A DNA stretch of 20,038 nt, taken from positions 1 to 20,038 of the IMG/VR virus record IMGVR_UViG_3300020183_000577. The stretch is one strand, 5' to 3'. The notes below the pieces were generated by a model. That model did no database searches and had not been told where the DNA came from. It worked only from the letters and a program-made list of their open reading frames with translations. The position numbers and the translations under genes are program-made. This DNA comes from a virus. Shown here in pieces: positions 1,660-8,159 of this stretch; position 1 is the stretch's first letter; each line of letters opens with the position of its first letter.

Positions 1660-2315
1660 ACTACACGCAGTTAACATCCGCTATTAAAGGGTTTGCAGAG
1701 AACGACTTCCCAGCGACAGTTGGGTCGTTTACGTCCGCTGACCAGATTGCCCGTTTTGTGCAGTTGGCAGAGCAAAGTGTCTTTAATACGGTTCAACTAC
1801 CTGCATTTCGCCAAAACGTCACAGGAACGATGACAAGCGGTAATAAGTATTTAGCAACGCCTTCGGATTGGTTAGCGACCTTTAGTCTTGCGGTGATTAA
1901 TGCGGGGAATGAATATAAGTATCTATTGAACAAAGATGTTAATTTTATTCGTGAGTCCTTCCCAGATACAGACGCTGCGTTCTTTGGAGAACCCCAGTAT
2001 TACGCTGTCTTTGACGATAACACCTTTATTCTAGGACCTACTCCTGACGCTAACTACGCTACTGAGCTTCATTATTTCTACTACCCACCGTCTATTGTGA
2101 CCGCAGGGACTTCTTGGCTTGGCACAAACTTTGACTCTGTGCTTCTATATGGTGCATTATTAGAAGCGGCTAACTTTATGAAGTCGGACACTGATGCGGT
2201 CAATTTATACAAAGAACGCTATGGCAGAGCTATGGCAGAACTCAAACAATTAGGCGATGCAAAAGAACGTCAAGACGCCTACAGAAGTGGACAAGTAAGG
2301 TATCCAGTTCGATGA
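1656..2315 (+). CDS. Head-tail adaptor protein (SU10-type adaptor-like)
   Basis: 219 residues. The N-terminal helix begins MNYTQLTSAIKGFAEND, followed by QIARFVQLAEQSVF; the middle is beta-rich (FILGPTPDANYATELHYFYYP); the C-terminus is helical with LLYGALLEAANFM and YKERYGRAMAELKQL. This is the layout of the phage SU10-type adaptor family that docks under the portal in podovirus-like virions. It shares its core order (PTPDA strand, aromatic strand, alanine-rich helix, Tyr/Met helix) with the protein at 2-793, so the two may be paralogous neck rings. The start overlaps the previous stop as ATGA. Family assignment rests on pattern recognition rather than an alignment. Confidence 0.78.
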   Translation: MNYTQLTSAIKGFAENDFPATVGSFTSADQIARFVQLAEQSVFNTVQLPAFRQNVTGTMTSGNKYLATPSDWLATFSLAVINAGNEYKYLLNKDVNFIRESFPDTDAAFFGEPQYYAVFDDNTFILGPTPDANYATELHYFYYPPSIVTAGTSWLGTNFDSVLLYGALLEAANFMKSDTDAVNLYKERYGRAMAELKQLGDAKERQDAYRSGQVRYPVR

Positions 2316-3010
2316 TTCCAGACCTATCAGGTAAAAACATTGCTATTGTGGCAATGGGAAAATCCCATAGTCAGTTCATCCTAGCTAAGACCCATTCTCA
2401 GCCAATTGATGAAGTATGGGCAATTAACGCTATGGCAGGGGTCATTTATCACGACCGAGTCTTTATGATGGATCCAGCTAGTCGATTCTTAGACAGTGAT
2501 GATGCAGGCACTCAAACGGGACTTATGCGGGCTGTTTTAGAAAAACACACAGGTCCAATCTACACCTGTGAGTTAGACCCCCGTTGTCCTGGATTAGTAG
2601 AGTTTCCTCTGGATGAAGTAATGAATGCTTGCGGGACGGGGTACTTTAATAACACCGTAGCCTTTGCGATTGGCTATGCCATTGCTGCCAAGGTAGGGCA
2701 AATTCACCTGTATGGGATTGATTTTTCGTACAAAAACGTAGTCCACTTTGCCGAGGCAGGTAGGGCGTGTTGTGAGTTTTTACTGGCAAAGGCGATGGAA
2801 CGGGGCATTAAGGTTGGTATAGCTCAAGGATCATGCCTGTTAGATACCAGCGAACCCACTATTAGTAAGCTCTACGGCTACCACCGTCTTAGTGATCCAC
2901 TCGTTGTAGGGTTAGAAAATGAACGGTTTGTGGCTAAAAAGTACTCAGAAATTAAAGATACGGTAAAAGACGAGGTGGAGTACAACCCACCAGAAGCAAA
3001 GAGGACATAA
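2312..3010 (+). CDS. Rossmann-like protein, possibly MptE/DUF115-like
   Basis: 232 residues. It begins with a Rossmann-like strand and loop (NIAIVAMGKSH), continues EVWAINAMAGVIYHDRVFMMDP, and has a central block GTGYFNNTVAFAIGYAIAAK followed by IHLYGIDFSY (residues about 108-140). The last block resembles the region in DUF115/MptE-like and related sugar- or pterin-phosphate enzymes where a Gly/Ser-rich turn precedes a helix and a strand ending in G-x-D. Enzymes of this look appear as accessory genes among phage structural genes. Substrate is unknown; surface-sugar modification is one possibility. It starts with an ATGA overlap and is followed one base after its stop by the next ATG. The identification is tentative. 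Confidence 0.62.
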   Translation: MIPDLSGKNIAIVAMGKSHSQFILAKTHSQPIDEVWAINAMAGVIYHDRVFMMDPASRFLDSDDAGTQTGLMRAVLEKHTGPIYTCELDPRCPGLVEFPLDEVMNACGTGYFNNTVAFAIGYAIAAKVGQIHLYGIDFSYKNVVHFAEAGRACCEFLLAKAMERGIKVGIAQGSCLLDTSEPTISKLYGYHRLSDPLVVGLENERFVAKKYSEIKDTVKDEVEYNPPEAKRT

Positions 3011-3749: not shown

Positions 3750-4697
3750 GTGGCTGATGTATCCGTTTCTCTAGAAGGCTTTGGTCTTGATGGGTGGGGT
3801 GACTCACCTTGGGGATTTGGGAGTACTTCGCTTGTAGGAACTGGAGCTGTAGGAACAGTATTAATATCTGAAAATATTAATGTAAGTGTCACAGGAGTAG
3901 CTGGTACAGGTAGTGTAAATGGTGTAACAGTTACAGGAACTTCGGTTCTAAGCCTTACAGGCGTTAGCGGTACAGGGCAAGTAGGAGTTGCTCAAAAGCG
4001 AGACGACATAGACGTTTACCTTGAAGGATGGGGTTACTTAGGCTGGGGTGATACTGGCTGGGGTACAGGTAGTGCGGGAGTAGCTGGTACTGGAGCAATA
4101 GGTTCAGTATTAGTTATTACAAACGTAGATGTAAGTGTTACAGGAGTGGCAGGCACAGTAGCAATTAGTGGTGTAACTGTAAATGCAGCGGCAAATGCTC
4201 CAGTATCAGGGTTAAGTGCTACAGGAAGTATTGGCGGAGTTCAAGTTACAGGCACGGGAATATTAGATTTAACAGGTGTTAGCGGTACAGGTAGTGTGGG
4301 TCAAGTAGGAGTTGCAGAAGGTATTAGTGTTAATGTTACAGGAGTATCTGCGACAGGGCAGGTTGATAGTGTAACTGTAACGGGCGCAGCCGATGTAAAT
4401 GTAACAGGGCTTCAAGCTGTTGGTAGCATTGGCAGTGTAGTAATTGCAGAAAATATTAATGTAAGCGTAACGGGTGTAGCAGGAACAGTAGGACAAGGCT
4501 CTGTAGTTGTAAATGCTGCCGCTAATGCTCCAGTAACGGGATTAAGTGCTACAGGGTCTATAGGAACTGTAAGTTTTGTAACAAATGCGAATGTGAGTGT
4601 TACAGGTGTGCAGTCAGTAGGGCAAGTTGGTCAGTTGTCGTTCTGGTTAGAAATTGATACTAGCCAAACCCCGAACTGGGTTGAAATAGCAGCATAA
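3750..4697 (+). CDS. Repeat-built virion surface protein
   Basis: 315 residues from a GTG start with AAGG 10-14 bases upstream. Two copies of a Trp/Gly module (residues 3-39, with EGFGLDGWGDSPWGFG; residues 88-123, with EGWGYLGWGDTGWGTG) precede an array of 22-residue repeats, in perfect register from residue 127 to 280. The core of each unit reads like TGVSATGSVGSVTVT. The C-terminus leaves the repeat and ends FWLEIDTSQTPNWVEIAA, an ending also seen in other environmental phage structural proteins. Alternating beta residues and glycine turns suggest a beta-solenoid or stacked beta fold. It lies between a beta-rich virion protein and the tail fibre, so a tail appendage or capsid-surface role is likely. 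It has no enzymatic motif. Confidence 0.75.
   Translation: MADVSVSLEGFGLDGWGDSPWGFGSTSLVGTGAVGTVLISENINVSVTGVAGTGSVNGVTVTGTSVLSLTGVSGTGQVGVAQKRDDIDVYLEGWGYLGWGDTGWGTGSAGVAGTGAIGSVLVITNVDVSVTGVAGTVAISGVTVNAAANAPVSGLSATGSIGGVQVTGTGILDLTGVSGTGSVGQVGVAEGISVNVTGVSATGQVDSVTVTGAADVNVTGLQAVGSIGSVVIAENINVSVTGVAGTVGQGSVVVNAAANAPVTGLSATGSIGTVSFVTNANVSVTGVQSVGQVGQLSFWLEIDTSQTPNWVEIAA
3831..4643 (+). repeat. 22-residue (66-bp) coding repeat array
   Basis: Within the gene at 3750-4697. Units starting at residues 127, 149, 171, 193, 215, 237 and 259 follow each other without a gap (4128-4589). A further full unit lies at residues 44-65 and partial units at 28-43, 66-82, 110-126 and 281-298. Alternate units resemble each other most: NAPVSGLSATGSIG against NAPVTGLSATGSIG, and units beginning NVSVTGVAGT. 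This points to duplication of multi-unit blocks. The DNA copies are diverged at third positions, so the array is old or under selection rather than freshly expanded. Confidence 0.85.
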
Positions 4698-4726: not shown

Positions 4727-5773
4727 ATGGCATCGACATACAGCACTCTTAAAGTAGAGTTAATTGGTACAGGTGACCAAACAGGCACTTGGGGGACAAC
4801 TACTAACGATAATCTTTCTATTGCTCTTGGCGAAGCAATCACAGGATCGGCAGATGTCAGTTTTTCAAGTGCGGACGTTACAGTTACCCTGACCGACACC
4901 AATGCTGCTCAAACAGCCCGCAATCTACGGCTTAACCTCACAGGCACTTCAGGCGGTGCAAGGAACTTAATCCTTGGTTCAGGTTGCCAAATTGAAAAAC
5001 TGTACTTAATTAATAACGGATTAGCAGACGCAGTCACGGTAAAGAACACATCAGGTACAGGAATAGCCGTCCCCGCTGGCGCATCTATGTTTGTTTATAA
5101 CAACGGAACTAATGTAGTTGAAGTACTTAAAGCCATACCCGTAGCCGCTGGCGGTACAGGACTTGCAACGCTTACAGCAAACAACGTCATACTGGGTAAC
5201 GGTACAAGCGCTGTTCAGTTTGTATCTCCTAGCACCAACGGTAATGTATTAACTGCAAACGGTACAACTTGGGTATCTTCTACCCCTGCGGCTGGTGGAA
5301 CTGTGATCCCTGCGGGTACAGTTATGTTGTTTGCTCAGACTTCTGCGCCGACAGGATTTACTAAAAATACATCAACTGGCGATAACTCAGCGTTGCGTGT
5401 TGTAACAGGTTCTGCAAGTACTGGCGGTAGCGTAGACTTTACAACTGCTTTTGCAAGTCAGACTCCATCTGGCTCTGTTTCTATTAGTGCAATTAGTGGT
5501 AGTGCTGGCGCAACAACTCTTAGTACACCTCAGATTCCTAGCCATAATCATAGTATTACTTCAATTTCAGGAGGTAGTAGTATTCATGCAGGCGTCAACC
5601 ACCCTTCTACGCAATCATGCGTGTCTCAGTCTTCTTATAATACAAATAATACTGGGGGAGGTGGATCGCATGACCACCCATTTAGCTTCTCAAGTGGCAC
5701 TGCTTCGTTTAGTGGAAATGCAATTAATCTTGCTGTTAAATACGTAGACGTAATTCGTGCAACTAAAGATTAA
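4727..5773 (+). CDS. Tail fibre / collar-like receptor-binding protein
   Basis: 348 residues. The N-terminal part (TYSTLKVELIGTGDQTGTW, GTTTNDNLSIALGEAI) is a typical phage fibre start. Residues 137-185 form the common GGTGLATLTANNVILGNGT module. Residues 194-213 (IPAGTVMLFAQTSAPTGFTK) are the start of a tail-collar type domain. The tip has two HxH motifs, H273/H275 (IPSHNHS) and H315/H317 (GGSHDHPF), then ends NLAVKYVDVIRATKD. HxH motifs of this kind bind metal ions in trimeric short-fibre tips such as T4 gp12. I infer a trimeric receptor-binding fibre. AAGGA lies just upstream of the ATG. The predicted fibre chaperone follows two genes later. Confidence 0.85.
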   Translation: MASTYSTLKVELIGTGDQTGTWGTTTNDNLSIALGEAITGSADVSFSSADVTVTLTDTNAAQTARNLRLNLTGTSGGARNLILGSGCQIEKLYLINNGLADAVTVKNTSGTGIAVPAGASMFVYNNGTNVVEVLKAIPVAAGGTGLATLTANNVILGNGTSAVQFVSPSTNGNVLTANGTTWVSSTPAAGGTVIPAGTVMLFAQTSAPTGFTKNTSTGDNSALRVVTGSASTGGSVDFTTAFASQTPSGSVSISAISGSAGATTLSTPQIPSHNHSITSISGGSSIHAGVNHPSTQSCVSQSSYNTNNTGGGGSHDHPFSFSSGTASFSGNAINLAVKYVDVIRATKD

Positions 5774-5782
5774 TGATTAAAA

Positions 5783-6088
5783 ATGGGAACACTTAAAAAC
5801 GGGTCGTTTTGCCCACTCATTAAAAAAGACTGCGTTGGTCTTACTTGTGCTTGGTTTACTCGTGTGCAGGGCTACGATATGAATAGCGGCAATCAAGTAG
5901 ACAACTATGAATGTGCAATATCGTGGCTGCCAATGTTACTTATTGAAAACTCAGGGCAACAACGACAAACTGGCGCAGCGGTTGAATCATTTAGAAACGA
6001 AATGGTTAAAGCTAACGAAGTAAATACTCAACTACTTTTAGCGGCTTCTGAATCACAACAACCCAAATTACTTAGGAGTAAAAAATGA
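5783..6088 (+). CDS. Conserved four-cysteine phage protein
   Basis: 101 residues. Four cysteines are spaced C10-x6-C17-x4-C22-x21-C44 (FCPLIKKDCVGLTCAWFT, then YECAISWLP), followed by LLIENSGQQRQTGAAVESFR and a helical tail. I recognise this as a frequent family next to fibre genes of environmental phages, without known function. The cysteines could bind zinc or an iron-sulfur cluster; the sequence does not decide between them. No clear Shine-Dalgarno precedes the ATG, which lies 10 bases after the fibre gene stop; an ATG at 5773 opens a different, very short frame. Its 3' end overlaps the next start as ATGA. Confidence 0.68.
   Translation: MGTLKNGSFCPLIKKDCVGLTCAWFTRVQGYDMNSGNQVDNYECAISWLPMLLIENSGQQRQTGAAVESFRNEMVKANEVNTQLLLAASESQQPKLLRSKK
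6072..6078 (+). promoter_or_regulatory. Shine-Dalgarno TTAGGAG
   Basis: TTAGGAG six bases before the ATG at 6085, within the end of the upstream gene. It is the second of three identical heptamers at gene starts in this window. Confidence 0.6.
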
Positions 6089-6549
6089 AATTAACCATTA
6101 TCCCTGTTAACGGATCGGTTGGTGAAAATGAAGTTTTTTATAATGATCTTGATTTAAGTTCTTGTAACATCCCAGAAAACGTTCATGCTCTTCAATGGGA
6201 CAATGTTGCTGGATGGATTGAGTTTAAAGACCCAGTGCCTAATCAACCTATTACAGAACTACCAGCGTGGGCTAACTGCTGCATGACTAAGTGGACTGAA
6301 GCAAATACGCCAGTGCCACCACAACCACCAACAGCAGCACAAAATAAAGCGATCGCTGTAAGTAAATTACAAGCAACCGATTGGACTACTATTCCTGATG
6401 TTGGCGACCCAACAAAAAGCAATCCATATTTGAGTAATGTTCAAGATTTTGTTGTGTACCGTAATGCTGTTCGTCAATACGCTGTTTACCCAGTTGCTGG
6501 TAATATTAACTGGCCCACTGAACCCCAAGAAGTTTGGACAACTGTTTAG
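6085..6549 (+). CDS. Probable tail fibre assembly chaperone
   Basis: 154 residues. The N-terminus (MKLTIIPVNGSVGENEVFY, then SCNIPENVHALQWDNVAGWI) is followed by a Pro-rich linker (NTPVPPQPP) and a C-terminal domain with KLQATDWTTIPDV, FVVYRNAVRQYAVYP and WPTEPQEVW. The pattern 'LQATDWT ... YRxxLR ... P..W' is typical of phage tail assembly chaperones of the PF16778/Tfa type, which usually follow the fibre gene, as here. It probably helps the 348-residue fibre trimerise. The start has TTAGGAG six bases upstream. The final TAG stop is embedded in the next gene's TTAGGAG. The C-terminal domain match is stronger than the N-terminal one. Confidence 0.75.
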   Translation: MKLTIIPVNGSVGENEVFYNDLDLSSCNIPENVHALQWDNVAGWIEFKDPVPNQPITELPAWANCCMTKWTEANTPVPPQPPTAAQNKAIAVSKLQATDWTTIPDVGDPTKSNPYLSNVQDFVVYRNAVRQYAVYPVAGNINWPTEPQEVWTTV

Positions 6550-6558: not shown

Positions 6559-6843
6559 ATGGCTGACGCTATACCAACACCATATGAAATTAATTCTTTA
6601 AAAGGCACTTATTACGAATTTCCTAAAAAAGAAGATATTCTTGGGGGGCATTATCATTCGCAAGGGCAGGGACACATAACTATTGTTCAATCTGGTTGTG
6701 TAGCAATTAGATCTCTCTATTTAGATCAGGCTTGGGAAAAAATTGGTAAAGCTGGTGATGTATTTGATTTACCTGATGAACAGTGGCATGAAATAATTGC
6801 TTTAGAAGACAATAGCAAAATATTAAATATTCAAAAAGGTTAA
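6559..6843 (+). CDS. Small cupin-domain protein
   Basis: 94 residues, about the size of a single cupin barrel. The motif 1 region GGHYHSQGQGHITIVQSG gives H31 and H33, with H39 near the place where the classical glutamate would be. The motif 2 region GDVFDLPDEQWHEI (residues 66-79) gives H77. This is a plausible three- or four-histidine metal site. Cupins include dioxygenases, isomerases and binding proteins, so the reaction cannot be named. It is immediately followed by two 2-oxoglutarate/Fe(II) oxygenases, so the three may act on one substrate, perhaps a host surface molecule or a virion protein. Base composition is AT-richer than in the fibre genes. Confidence 0.78.
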   Translation: MADAIPTPYEINSLKGTYYEFPKKEDILGGHYHSQGQGHITIVQSGCVAIRSLYLDQAWEKIGKAGDVFDLPDEQWHEIIALEDNSKILNIQKG

Positions 6844-6844
6844 A

Positions 6845-7384
6845 GTGAACCAAGACCTTGAGCAAAACAATTTTTTGTTTGTTCCTAACTTTATCAGCCA
6901 GGAGCGTGCACAAGCATTAAGTCAAGAGTTCTATAAGCTAGAAACAAGTGAGCAATATACTAAAGACCATCAAGCCCCAAATTCGCCAGCAGTTTATAAC
7001 TTTAAACCATTTCTTGAGCTGCTTTGTCAAAAAGTTGGTGAAGTAAGCACGTTGATTGAAGAACCAGTACTACCCACATATACTTACGCTCGTATATATA
7101 AAAATGGTGAAGTGTTAAATAGGCATCGTGATCGTCCAGCTTGTGAAATAAGTCTTACTGTGCATATTGGTAGCGATGCAGATTGGGGTATAAGTATTCA
7201 AAAACTTAATGGAGAAGAAGTTGAATTAAATTTAAAAAAAGGCGATGCTATGTTGTATCTTGGATGCACGGCAGATCACTGGAGAAATACACCTTTTAGT
7301 GGGCAAAACTATAGCCAAGTATTTTTACATTATGTGCGTAGTAATGGCCCAAACGCATGGGCTTATTTTGATAAAAAACAATGA
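6845..7384 (+). CDS. 2-oxoglutarate/Fe(II)-dependent oxygenase (first of pair)
   Basis: 179 residues from a GTG start one base after the cupin stop, with AAAGG six to ten bases upstream. The N-terminus NNFLFVPNFISQERAQAL is typical of prolyl-hydroxylase-like oxygenases. The double-stranded beta-helix contains LNRHRDRPACEISLTVHIG, giving the HxD iron ligands H94 and D96, and GDAMLYLGCTADHWR with the distal ligand H145. The C-terminal strand SQVFLHYVRSNG closes the core; which arginine binds 2-oxoglutarate (R147 or R165) is not clear. The likely reaction is hydroxylation coupled to decarboxylation of 2-oxoglutarate. Such genes are common in aquatic phages, with mostly unknown substrates. Confidence 0.86.
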   Translation: MNQDLEQNNFLFVPNFISQERAQALSQEFYKLETSEQYTKDHQAPNSPAVYNFKPFLELLCQKVGEVSTLIEEPVLPTYTYARIYKNGEVLNRHRDRPACEISLTVHIGSDADWGISIQKLNGEEVELNLKKGDAMLYLGCTADHWRNTPFSGQNYSQVFLHYVRSNGPNAWAYFDKKQ

Positions 7385-7938
7385 AAGAACTAAAAGACTA
7401 CATCGTTGTGATGAATAACATTATGCCACCGCCCGTGGCAGATTTAATATTATCTGAATATAAAAACTGTAAAGATTGGATAAATGCCGACGTAAAAGAT
7501 GGAGAAAATTTAAACATTCGTAATTGCCAAACAATTGGCATTTCTTTTAATAGCATCATTGAAAAAAATTTAGAAGCACGTAAAAAAATAGATATCATGC
7601 TTTTTTCTATTGCAGGGCAAACCATAAAAGAATATATACGACATTTTAATCTTGCTCAAATAGAACAAGATTCTGGGTATGACTTACTTAAATATGAAAT
7701 AGGTGGTTTTTATATTCAACATACCGACTCTTTTAAAGATCGCCCTCGTGCGGTTTCTTGTTCATTTGCATTAAATGACGATTACGAAGGGGGAGAGTTT
7801 GCTTTTTTTGACCGTGAGTTGGTGTATAAGCTAAAAAAAGGGGCGTGCATTGTGTTCCCTTCCAATTTTATGTACCCCCACGAAATAATGCCCGTGACTA
7901 GTGGTACACGGTATTCTATTGTGACTTGGTTTGTATAA
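7381..7938 (+). CDS. 2-oxoglutarate/Fe(II)-dependent oxygenase, prolyl-4-hydroxylase type (second of pair)
   Basis: 185 residues, overlapping the upstream gene by four bases (ATGA). Residues 100-184 form the P4H-like core: YDLLKYEIGGFYIQHTDS supplies H114 and D116, then LNDDYEGGEFAFFD, GACIVFPSNFMYPHEI supplies H167, and TSGTRYSIVTWF supplies R177, ten residues after the distal histidine as expected for 2-oxoglutarate binding. All key residues are present, so it should be active. It is only distantly similar to the oxygenase just upstream, so the pair is not a recent duplication. It is strongly AT-rich: 7441-7500 has 15 G/C in 60 bases. Substrate unknown. Confidence 0.9.
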   Translation: MKELKDYIVVMNNIMPPPVADLILSEYKNCKDWINADVKDGENLNIRNCQTIGISFNSIIEKNLEARKKIDIMLFSIAGQTIKEYIRHFNLAQIEQDSGYDLLKYEIGGFYIQHTDSFKDRPRAVSCSFALNDDYEGGEFAFFDRELVYKLKKGACIVFPSNFMYPHEIMPVTSGTRYSIVTWFV

Positions 7939-7946
7939 GGGCTAAT

Positions 7947-8159
7947 ATGAAAAAAACTATTCAAGCTAGAACCTTAGATAGCGGGCTGATTGAGCCGCAC
8001 CACGAAATAGAAGTGGTGTGTTTGGCGTGTGGTTACGACTTAGATGAAGCCGAGCTACAAGCCGATGTCTGCTCAAACTGCGGTGCGCCTTTAAACCTTA
8101 GACAGCATATATTGATTCACGCTACGTCTGTTCCTGCCGCTGGCGGAGAGGTGTTTTAA
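7947..8159 (+). CDS. Small zinc-ribbon protein
   Basis: 70 residues. The ATG at 7947 is preferred over the in-frame ATG at 7926, because it lies just outside the upstream gene and has AAGG (7937-7940) at suitable distance. Two CxxC pairs, C25/C28 (VCLACGYD) and C42/C45 (VCSNCGAPL), form a compact zinc ribbon. The rest is MKKTIQARTLDSGLIEP before it and LRQHILIHATSVPAAGG after it. It may be a small nucleic-acid-binding or adaptor protein; no specific family is recognised. It separates the AT-rich oxygenase cassette from the lysis genes, and its own base composition is back at the GC level of the lysis genes. Confidence 0.65.
   Translation: MKKTIQARTLDSGLIEPHHEIEVVCLACGYDLDEAELQADVCSNCGAPLNLRQHILIHATSVPAAGGEVF

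What the first reader, a model, noticed from the sequence alone, without database searches (positions are those of the whole stretch)
6559..7938. Cupin plus two divergent 2OG/Fe(II) oxygenases as one cassette next to the fibre genes
Three metal-dependent, oxygenase-type genes lie within 1.4 kb, with one-base spacing or four-base overlap, directly after the tail fibre chaperone. Both oxygenases keep their HxD...H iron ligands. Such a compact trio suggests one pathway: hydroxylation of a virion or fibre protein, a host surface glycan, or a small metabolite. This is the best candidate for an undescribed modification system here.
Basis: partly seen in the sequence, partly recalled or inferred. Interest (0 to 1): 0.72.

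Follow-up and report, generated by a model that had tools for sequence, protein, structure and literature searches.

The report
Phage tail-fibre oxygenase pair with cupin
A phage carries two different iron-dependent oxygenases (and an accessory cupin) right behind its tail-fibre genes; the oxygenase pair recurs there in many unrelated water phages, often fused into one protein, and also beside giant exported proteins in bacteria, so it probably hydroxylates adhesion proteins, and one of the two has been mislabelled 'ferrochelatase' in databases and papers.

Summary
Cupin (6559-6843), Ox1 (6845-7384) and Ox2 (7381-7938) are real genes in one tight cassette behind a tail-fibre assembly gene. Both oxygenases keep HxD...H. 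Ox2 resembles prolyl-4-hydroxylase/PHD2. Ox1 falls in PHROG 2954, named 'ferrochelatase', but its predicted structure (pLDDT 96) is a 2OG-oxygenase barrel; two papers treat this family as a ferrochelatase metabolic gene.

Ox1-Ox2 is a genuine unit: adjacent in most module relatives and fused into one ORF in 31 distinct sequences. It sits in a conserved string: fibre, 4-Cys protein, chaperone, Ox1, Ox2. Of 70 contigs found through the 4-Cys gene alone, 66 carry Ox1 or Ox2. Some fused versions are followed by GT25-like glycosyltransferases. Four Burkholderiales genomes carry the pair near repetitive exported proteins (about 14,300 aa in one).

The cupin is weaker: most relatives lack this family, though 31 carry another cupin in the slot and none carries both.

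Best reading, untested by experiment: the pair hydroxylates the neighbouring adhesin. Against it: Ox1 lacks the canonical 2OG-binding Arg/Lys, and lone Ox1 relatives sit beside Dam or helicase genes in some cyanophages.

The parts
4727..5773 (+). Tail-collar / receptor-binding type fibre gene, probable substrate or neighbour of the substrate; HxH motifs near the C-terminus (PSHNH, SHDH)
   Evidence: PHROG 31104 (5e-14); its homologue lies directly upstream of the 5783 gene in 35 of 35 deduped loci with room to see it
5783..6088 (+). Small protein with four invariant Cys and an invariant AVESFRNE core; constant partner of the module, function unknown
   Evidence: Alignment of 28 relatives; 600+ IMG/VR relatives; no PDB or family match; AF2 model of low confidence, pLDDT 59
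6085..6549 (+). Tail fibre assembly chaperone
   Evidence: PHROG 4912 tail fiber assembly 1.3e-4; Phage_tail_APC 0.0023, below cut-off; its positional counterpart in P-SSM2 hits tail fibre PHROGs at 8e-12
6559..6843 (+). Cupin (type A), accessory and replaceable member of the cassette
   Evidence: Cupin_2 0.027, sub-threshold; 7 IMG/VR relatives, all in the same slot; type B cupin in the same slot in other relatives, never both
6845..7384 (+). Ox1: 2OG-Fe(II)-type oxygenase, PHROG 2954 (misnamed ferrochelatase); H94-x-D96...H145; invariant R147, Q158, H162
   Evidence: PHROG 2954 1e-56; AF2 pLDDT 96.4; Foldseek best hit P. putida P4H 4j25 1.7e-9 and PHD2; alignment
7381..7938 (+). Ox2: P4H/PHD-like 2OG-Fe(II) oxygenase; H114-x-D116...H167...R177
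   Evidence: PF13640 3e-16; PHROG 61; profile vs PDB: B. anthracis P4H 3itq 4e-12, PHD2 over nearly full length 6e-9

Best explanation
Ox1 and Ox2 form a two-enzyme protein-hydroxylation unit that acts, during or before assembly, on the adhesin encoded beside it: here the collar/receptor-binding tail fibre upstream (and possibly the 4-Cys protein). Each would bind Fe(II) and spend O2 and a co-substrate (2OG for Ox2; for Ox1 inferred from fold) to hydroxylate side chains. In many large phages the two domains are tethered in one chain by a variable, probably flexible linker, which fits successive action on one substrate, and in some the product could be glycosylated by adjacent GT25-like transferases. 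The cupin is an exchangeable accessory. Shown: gene identity, folds or family, metal-ligand conservation, pairing and fusion, fibre context, bacterial counterpart context. Inferred: catalytic activity, substrate, residue modified, benefit (e.g. altered receptor binding or stability).
For: Pairing: 31 distinct fused Ox1-Ox2 ORFs with charged linkers of about 15-130 aa; PHROG 3531 spans both domains; fusions annotated in isolates S-SCSM1 and S-SCSM2R. Fibre context: of 70 contigs fetched by the 4-Cys gene only, 66 have Ox1 or Ox2 downstream and 60 both; a fibre lies upstream in 35/35 deduped loci; the close Ox2 subfamily (45% identity or more) has a fibre upstream in 30/32 loci, more distant 2OG proteins in 2/15. 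Exceptions carry other 2OG-type proteins: PiuC-like in P-SSM2, DUF6445 in L197/L198. Protein-type relatives: Ox2 is nearest P4H and PHD2; Ox1's top Foldseek hits are P. putida P4H and PHD2, although VIA-align ties these with natural-product enzymes such as SnoN. Second context: Ox1-Ox2 near repetitive exported-type proteins, with SecA/HlyD-type genes beside them in three of the four loci examined; in Polaromonas the protein is about 14,300 aa with an LEPR-XLL leader; these versions nest inside the fibre-associated Ox1 clade. GT25-like genes directly follow fused pairs in 8 loci and are downstream in 9 of 28 fused vs 1 of 79 other loci. Distant Ox1 kin sit in NRPS-like and RiPP-like loci (read by eye). 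Precedent: Mimivirus L230 couples lysyl hydroxylase and GT25-type domains on collagen-like proteins, and hydroxylysine was found in virions (PMC9614988).
Against: No biochemical data. Ox1 has no conserved Arg/Lys about 10 residues after the distal His, so 2OG use is unproven. Lone Ox1 relatives (38-47% identical) overlap dam next to clamp-loader genes in Syn30, S-P4, S-CAM22 and P-SSM7 or follow a helicase in S-PM2-like phages; the ACG-2014f fusion lies away from fibres. CRP-361 has fibre, 4-Cys gene and chaperone with no oxygenase. Position next to fibres could reflect a variable region that collects surface-glycan or metabolic genes: carbamoyltransferase, aminotransferase and radical SAM genes also occur there. 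Ox1 and Ox2 swap partly independently (distance correlation r = 0.46).
Confidence: 0.5

Rival explanations
1. The cassette modifies a glycan or small molecule (host surface sugar, phage-made decoration, antibiotic-like compound) rather than a protein. The fibre neighbourhood is a variable region that carries host-surface genes of all sorts.
For: Carbamoyltransferase, glycosyltransferases, aminotransferase, radical SAM, sulfotransferase-like and SGNH-like genes occur in the same slot in relatives (several read by eye only). Natural-product enzymes (SnoN, AviO1, HygX) are among Ox1's structural matches, and SnoN ranks first by VIA-align. Distant Ox1 kin sit in an NRPS-like cluster. Pfam's GT25 family includes LPS-acting enzymes.
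Against: Ox2's closest solved relatives are protein or peptide hydroxylases. The pair alone, without sugar genes, is the common state behind fibres. In bacteria the pair lies by a giant exported protein rather than a sugar cluster.
Confidence: 0.2
2. Ox1 (and perhaps Ox2) acts on nucleic acid: base oxidation or demethylation (AlkB/TET-like).
For: Weak Pfam match of Ox1 to 2OG-FeII_Oxy_2, the AlkB-like family (0.0039). Lone Ox1 overlaps dam by 4 bases next to clamp-loader genes in four cyanophages. DNA repair was proposed for cyanophage 2OG oxygenases (PMC3037559).
Against: Dam- and helicase-associated forms fall outside the window's own clade in the tree (quick tree). The window pair lies in late structural genes with no replication genes beside it. 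Ox2 is P4H-like.
Confidence: 0.12
3. Auxiliary metabolic genes that draw down 2-oxoglutarate or tune host nitrogen or iron metabolism (published view).
For: Proposed for cyanophages (PMC3037559); 'ferrochelatase' plus 2OG oxygenase treated as co-occurring metabolic genes in pelagiphages and a time series (PMC9599517, PMC11561400).
Against: Ox1 has the 2OG-oxygenase fold and none of 64 relatives matched a ferrochelatase Pfam family at E 0.1. The metabolic view does not predict fusion, fibre linkage or giant-protein linkage.
Confidence: 0.1
4. Ox1 is a non-catalytic or differently fuelled partner (scaffold or substrate-binder) and Ox2 is the only hydroxylase.
For: The canonical 2OG-anchoring Arg/Lys is absent at the expected place in Ox1. 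Ox2 occurs without Ox1 in some loci, e.g. L086, L094, L173, L236.
Against: H94, D96 and H145 are invariant in 64 sequences, with invariant R147 and Q158 that could serve instead. Lone Ox1 genes persist in cyanophages.
Confidence: 0.08

Closest known systems
Mimivirus L230 (lysyl hydroxylase + GT25-type glucosyltransferase on collagen-like viral proteins)
   Same: Virus-encoded Fe/2OG protein hydroxylase; pairing with a GT25-like activity, seen here in a subset of relatives; a virion protein is the substrate in Mimivirus
   Different: Here two divergent oxygenases without a fused GT, small phage enzymes, fibres not obviously collagen-like, substrate unproven; Ox2 matches the L230 domain 6ax6 only weakly (0.064)
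Bacterial prolyl-4-hydroxylases (B. anthracis P4H 3itq/5hv0; P. putida P4H 4j25, solved with EF-Tu as 4iw3) and PHD2/EGLN1
   Same: Ox2 shares sequence and motif layout; Ox1 shares the fold
   Different: 11-15% identity for Ox1; phage fibre context; substrate unknown; Ox1 lacks the usual 2OG anchor
PHROG 2954 / T4-GC 615 'ferrochelatase' of cyanophages and pelagiphages
   Same: Ox1 is a member (1e-56)
   Different: The name is wrong: fold and metal motif are those of a 2OG-Fe(II) oxygenase, not ferrochelatase
PHROG 61 2OG-Fe(II) oxygenase / PiuC-like proteins of cyanophages
   Same: Ox2 is a member; a PiuC-like relative occupies the same slot in P-SSM2
   Different: Ox2 is a distinct subfamily tied to Ox1 and fibres

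Membership tests
2OG-Fe(II) oxygenase superfamily (Ox2) | DSBH domain family match | tested here: met
   PF13640 3.3e-16, above cut-off
2OG-Fe(II) oxygenase superfamily (Ox2) | HxD...H facial triad and 2OG-binding Arg/Lys | tested here: met
   H114, D116, H167 invariant; R177 at least 90% in 59 sequences
2OG-Fe(II) oxygenase superfamily (Ox1) | DSBH fold | tested here: met
   AF2 pLDDT 96.4; the listed top Foldseek and VIA-align hits are Fe/2OG oxygenases, Z 16-17
2OG-Fe(II) oxygenase superfamily (Ox1) | HxD...H facial triad | tested here: met
   H94, D96, H145 invariant in 64 sequences
2OG-Fe(II) oxygenase superfamily (Ox1) | Arg/Lys anchoring 2OG about 10 residues after the distal His | tested here: inconclusive
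   No conserved Arg/Lys there; invariant R147, two residues after H145, may substitute; model geometry was not inspected
Prolyl-4-hydroxylase / PHD protein hydroxylases (Ox2) | Sequence relationship to solved P4H/PHD enzymes | tested here: met
   3itq 4.2e-12; EGLN1 over residues 7-185 at 5.6e-9
Prolyl-4-hydroxylase / PHD protein hydroxylases (Ox2) | Hydroxylation of Pro in a protein | not testable with these tools
   Needs enzyme assay or mass spectrometry
Ferrochelatase (HemH), the PHROG 2954 label for Ox1 | Match to a ferrochelatase sequence family | tested here: not met
   No ferrochelatase Pfam family among matches of 64 members at E 0.1; a 179-aa 2OG-oxygenase barrel instead
Cupin superfamily (6559-6843) | Cupin family match | tested here: inconclusive
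   Cupin_2 0.027, below gathering cut-off; HxH...H motif present
Mimivirus L230-type hydroxylase-glycosyltransferase system | GT25-like glycosyltransferase coupled to the hydroxylase | tested here: not met
   None seen in the window; adjacent in a subset of relatives, 9 of 28 fused loci

The most novel reading that the evidence does not exclude
A mobile adhesin-maturation system: a dual hydroxylase (Ox1-Ox2, with optional cupin and GT25 partners) that decorates phage receptor-binding fibres and, in Burkholderiales, giant exported proteins; protein hydroxylation would then be a widespread, unrecognised layer of phage host recognition in lakes and oceans.
Probability: 0.4. Interest if true: 0.82.

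Novelty: new variant of a known kind. Interest (0 to 1): 0.62.

Why it matters
2OG oxygenases are among the commonest 'auxiliary' genes of aquatic phages (24 reported in S-SCSM1; PMC10665884) and their role is open. This work ties one defined pair to receptor-binding fibres and to a cellular parallel, which turns a vague metabolic label into a testable claim about virion protein modification and host recognition. It also shows that the 'ferrochelatase' gene reported as enriched in seasonal marine viruses (PMC11561400) is most likely a 2OG-type oxygenase, so its co-occurrence with '2OG oxygenase' there probably reflects, at least in part, this enzyme pair.

Tried and rejected
Ferrochelatase for Ox1: rejected on fold and absence of family matches. 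Cupin as an obligatory member: rejected, since the one hit in the phage collection (ctEw122) has it behind a tail collar gene with no oxygenase annotated nearby and most relatives lack this family. Strict co-inheritance of Ox1 and Ox2: only moderate (r = 0.46, 0.27 after controlling for the 4-Cys gene), with cases such as L082 and L088 where Ox1 is divergent but cupin and Ox2 are not. Structure of the 4-Cys protein: model too poor to search (pLDDT 59). PDB sequence search with the Ox1 profile: only chance hits. Literature searches for hydroxylated phage fibres or phage-encoded fibre hydroxylases found no such report in the held library; three of these returned no papers at all and the library lacks most subscription journals, so this is weak evidence of absence. 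The Ox1 tree is a quick one (the careful search did not finish) and its sampling favours fibre loci.

Full report
Observation. Their metal-ligand motifs are intact and conserved and the genes are under purifying selection (oxygenase dN/dS mostly 0.06-0.2 against close relatives). The window is a 20,038-base IMG/VR virus record; its large 9588-11639 gene is related to virion 'stabilization' proteins of pelagiphages and other phages.

What the enzymes are. Ox2 is a clear 2OG-Fe(II) oxygenase (PF13640 3e-16). A profile of 59 relatives finds bacterial prolyl-4-hydroxylase (3itq, 4e-12), PHD2/EGLN1 over nearly its whole length (6e-9), and weaker LH3 and PiuC matches in the PDB. Ox1 has no PDB relative by sequence and is in PHROG 2954, 'ferrochelatase' (1e-56). 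Its AlphaFold2 model is confident (pLDDT 96.4). The best Foldseek matches are P. putida P4H and PHD2, while VIA-align ties these with natural-product 2OG enzymes such as SnoN. H94, D96 and H145 are invariant in 64 relatives, but no conserved Arg/Lys lies about 10 residues after H145; R147 is invariant. No ferrochelatase Pfam family appears among the matches of any of the 64. The label goes back at least to the cyanophage records and the 2010 comparison ('Hyp. with ferrochetalase domain', T4-GC 615) and has been used as a metabolic gene in a pelagiphage study and a viral time series, the latter naming phrog2954 (PMC9599517, PMC11561400). BFVD lists an S-SM1 relative of Ox1 as 'Ferrochelatase' among otherwise P4H and 2OG oxygenase structures.

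Ox1 and Ox2 as a unit. PHROG 3531 (362 aa) matches Ox1 over its first half and Ox2 over its second. In the loci fetched, 31 distinct ORFs carry both domains in frame, joined by variable charged linkers. Isolates S-SCSM1 and S-SCSM2R have this fusion as one annotated gene. Unfused pairs are adjacent, often within 30 nt. The two genes are nevertheless exchanged partly independently.

Fibre context. Across IMG/VR the order is: collar fibre, 4-Cys protein (window 5783-6088), chaperone, optional cupin, Ox1, Ox2, and in many relatives a second fibre gene. Sampling by the 4-Cys gene alone avoids selecting on the oxygenases: of 70 contigs with at least 2.5 kb downstream, 66 have Ox1 or Ox2 and 60 both. 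After removing near-identical loci the figures are 30 and 27 of 32, and a fibre lies upstream in 35 of 35. As a control, Ox2-like proteins under 45% identity have a fibre upstream in 2 of 15 loci against 30 of 32 for the close subfamily. The exceptions are informative: L197 and L198 carry a DUF6445 protein there and P-SSM2 a PiuC-like oxygenase, whereas L231 has a GNAT-like gene (by eye) and isolate CRP-361 has no oxygenase. These counts come from the closest 80 matches per query, so they describe the near neighbourhood of this module, not the whole family.

Cupin. The window's cupin has only 7 IMG/VR relatives by direct search, all in the same slot. Another cupin family (Cupin_2 1.8e-4) occurs in the slot in 31 of 79 unfused modules; type A occurs in 8 and none has both; fused modules have neither. 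This supports an exchangeable accessory role and no more.

Glycosyltransferases. In a subset of fused loci the oxygenase ORF is followed at once by up to three tandem glycosyltransferases. Eleven of 20 members match GT25 (best 1.5e-7), all 20 carry the DD of the EDD motif, and the best PDB relative is Mimivirus R655 (3e-4). They lie downstream in 9 of 28 fused loci against 1 of 79 others. Hydroxylation followed by sugar transfer is how Mimivirus L230 treats viral collagen-like proteins (PMC9614988). GT25 enzymes can also act on lipopolysaccharide, so this is suggestive only.

Bacterial counterpart. A scan of 84,980 species genomes found Ox1 (49-52%) directly followed by Ox2 (40-43%) in four Burkholderiales genomes or MAGs. 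The locus order is repetitive exported-type protein, then an Lcl_C-domain protein (family match tested in two), an APH-type kinase, Ox1 and Ox2; three of the four also have SecA-, M50- and HlyD-type genes beside the pair (families tested on Polaromonas L249, the others read by similarity). In Polaromonas CG9_12 the repetitive protein is at least 13,128 + 1,200 residues and starts with an LEPR-XLL domain. In a quick tree these versions nest within the fibre-associated Ox1 clade. Distant Ox1 relatives lie by what look like NRPS (Brasilonema) and RiPP (Dyella) genes (read by eye). The common thread is a peptide or protein substrate, and for the pair specifically a large surface or adhesion protein; that the giant protein is an adhesin is inferred from its repeats and leader.

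Counter-evidence. Lone Ox1 relatives overlap dam beside clamp-loader genes in Syn30, S-P4, S-CAM22 and P-SSM7 and lie by a helicase in S-PM2-like phages, although S-PM2 itself has a run of 2OG genes directly behind a gp12-like short tail fibre gene a few kb away. The ACG-2014f fusion is near ribonucleotide reductase genes. The Ox1 family therefore has more than one context, and function cannot be carried over without testing.

Conclusion. The finding is real and its core interpretation, an oxygenase cassette working on a fibre or adhesion protein, is the best-supported one (0.5), with the cupin demoted to an optional partner and the 'ferrochelatase' label corrected. Catalysis, substrate and residue remain unshown.

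Noticed in passing
window 2312-3010: 232-aa protein in the structural region with no Pfam, PHROG or NCBIfam match at the thresholds used; by eye Rossmann-like.
   Followed up: partly
window 5783-6088: Four-Cys ~100-aa protein with an almost invariant AVESFRNE stretch, in more than 600 IMG/VR loci and in P-SSM2, S-B43, S-SCSM1 and Roseobacter phage CRP-361, by fibre genes in the records examined; no family.
   Followed up: partly
window 7926-8159 (likely start at 7948): Small protein with two CxxC pairs (zinc-ribbon-like) that recurs downstream of Ox2 in relatives, also when a second fibre gene is inserted between.
   Followed up: no
window 3750-4697: Repetitive beta-type protein (GVAGTGSVGxVxVxG repeats); homologues lie both upstream of the module and, with a second collar fibre, behind Ox2 in relatives.
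   Followed up: no
L249 with L280 and L281 (Polaromonas CG9_12): Giant LEPR-XLL protein of about 14,300 aa in a locus with a SecA-like ATPase, an M50 protein similar to daptide metalloproteases, HlyD, an APH-type kinase and Ox1-Ox2: possibly an undescribed export and modification locus.
   Followed up: partly
L288, L289, L291, L286: Lone Ox1 overlapping dam by 4 bases next to clamp-loader genes in four cyanophages; a possible DNA-related role for that branch.
   Followed up: partly
L116, L218, L223: Carbamoyltransferase (PF02543/PF16861, tested on L218) between or near Ox1 and Ox2, with further 2OG-like and SGNH-like genes in the same slot.
   Followed up: no
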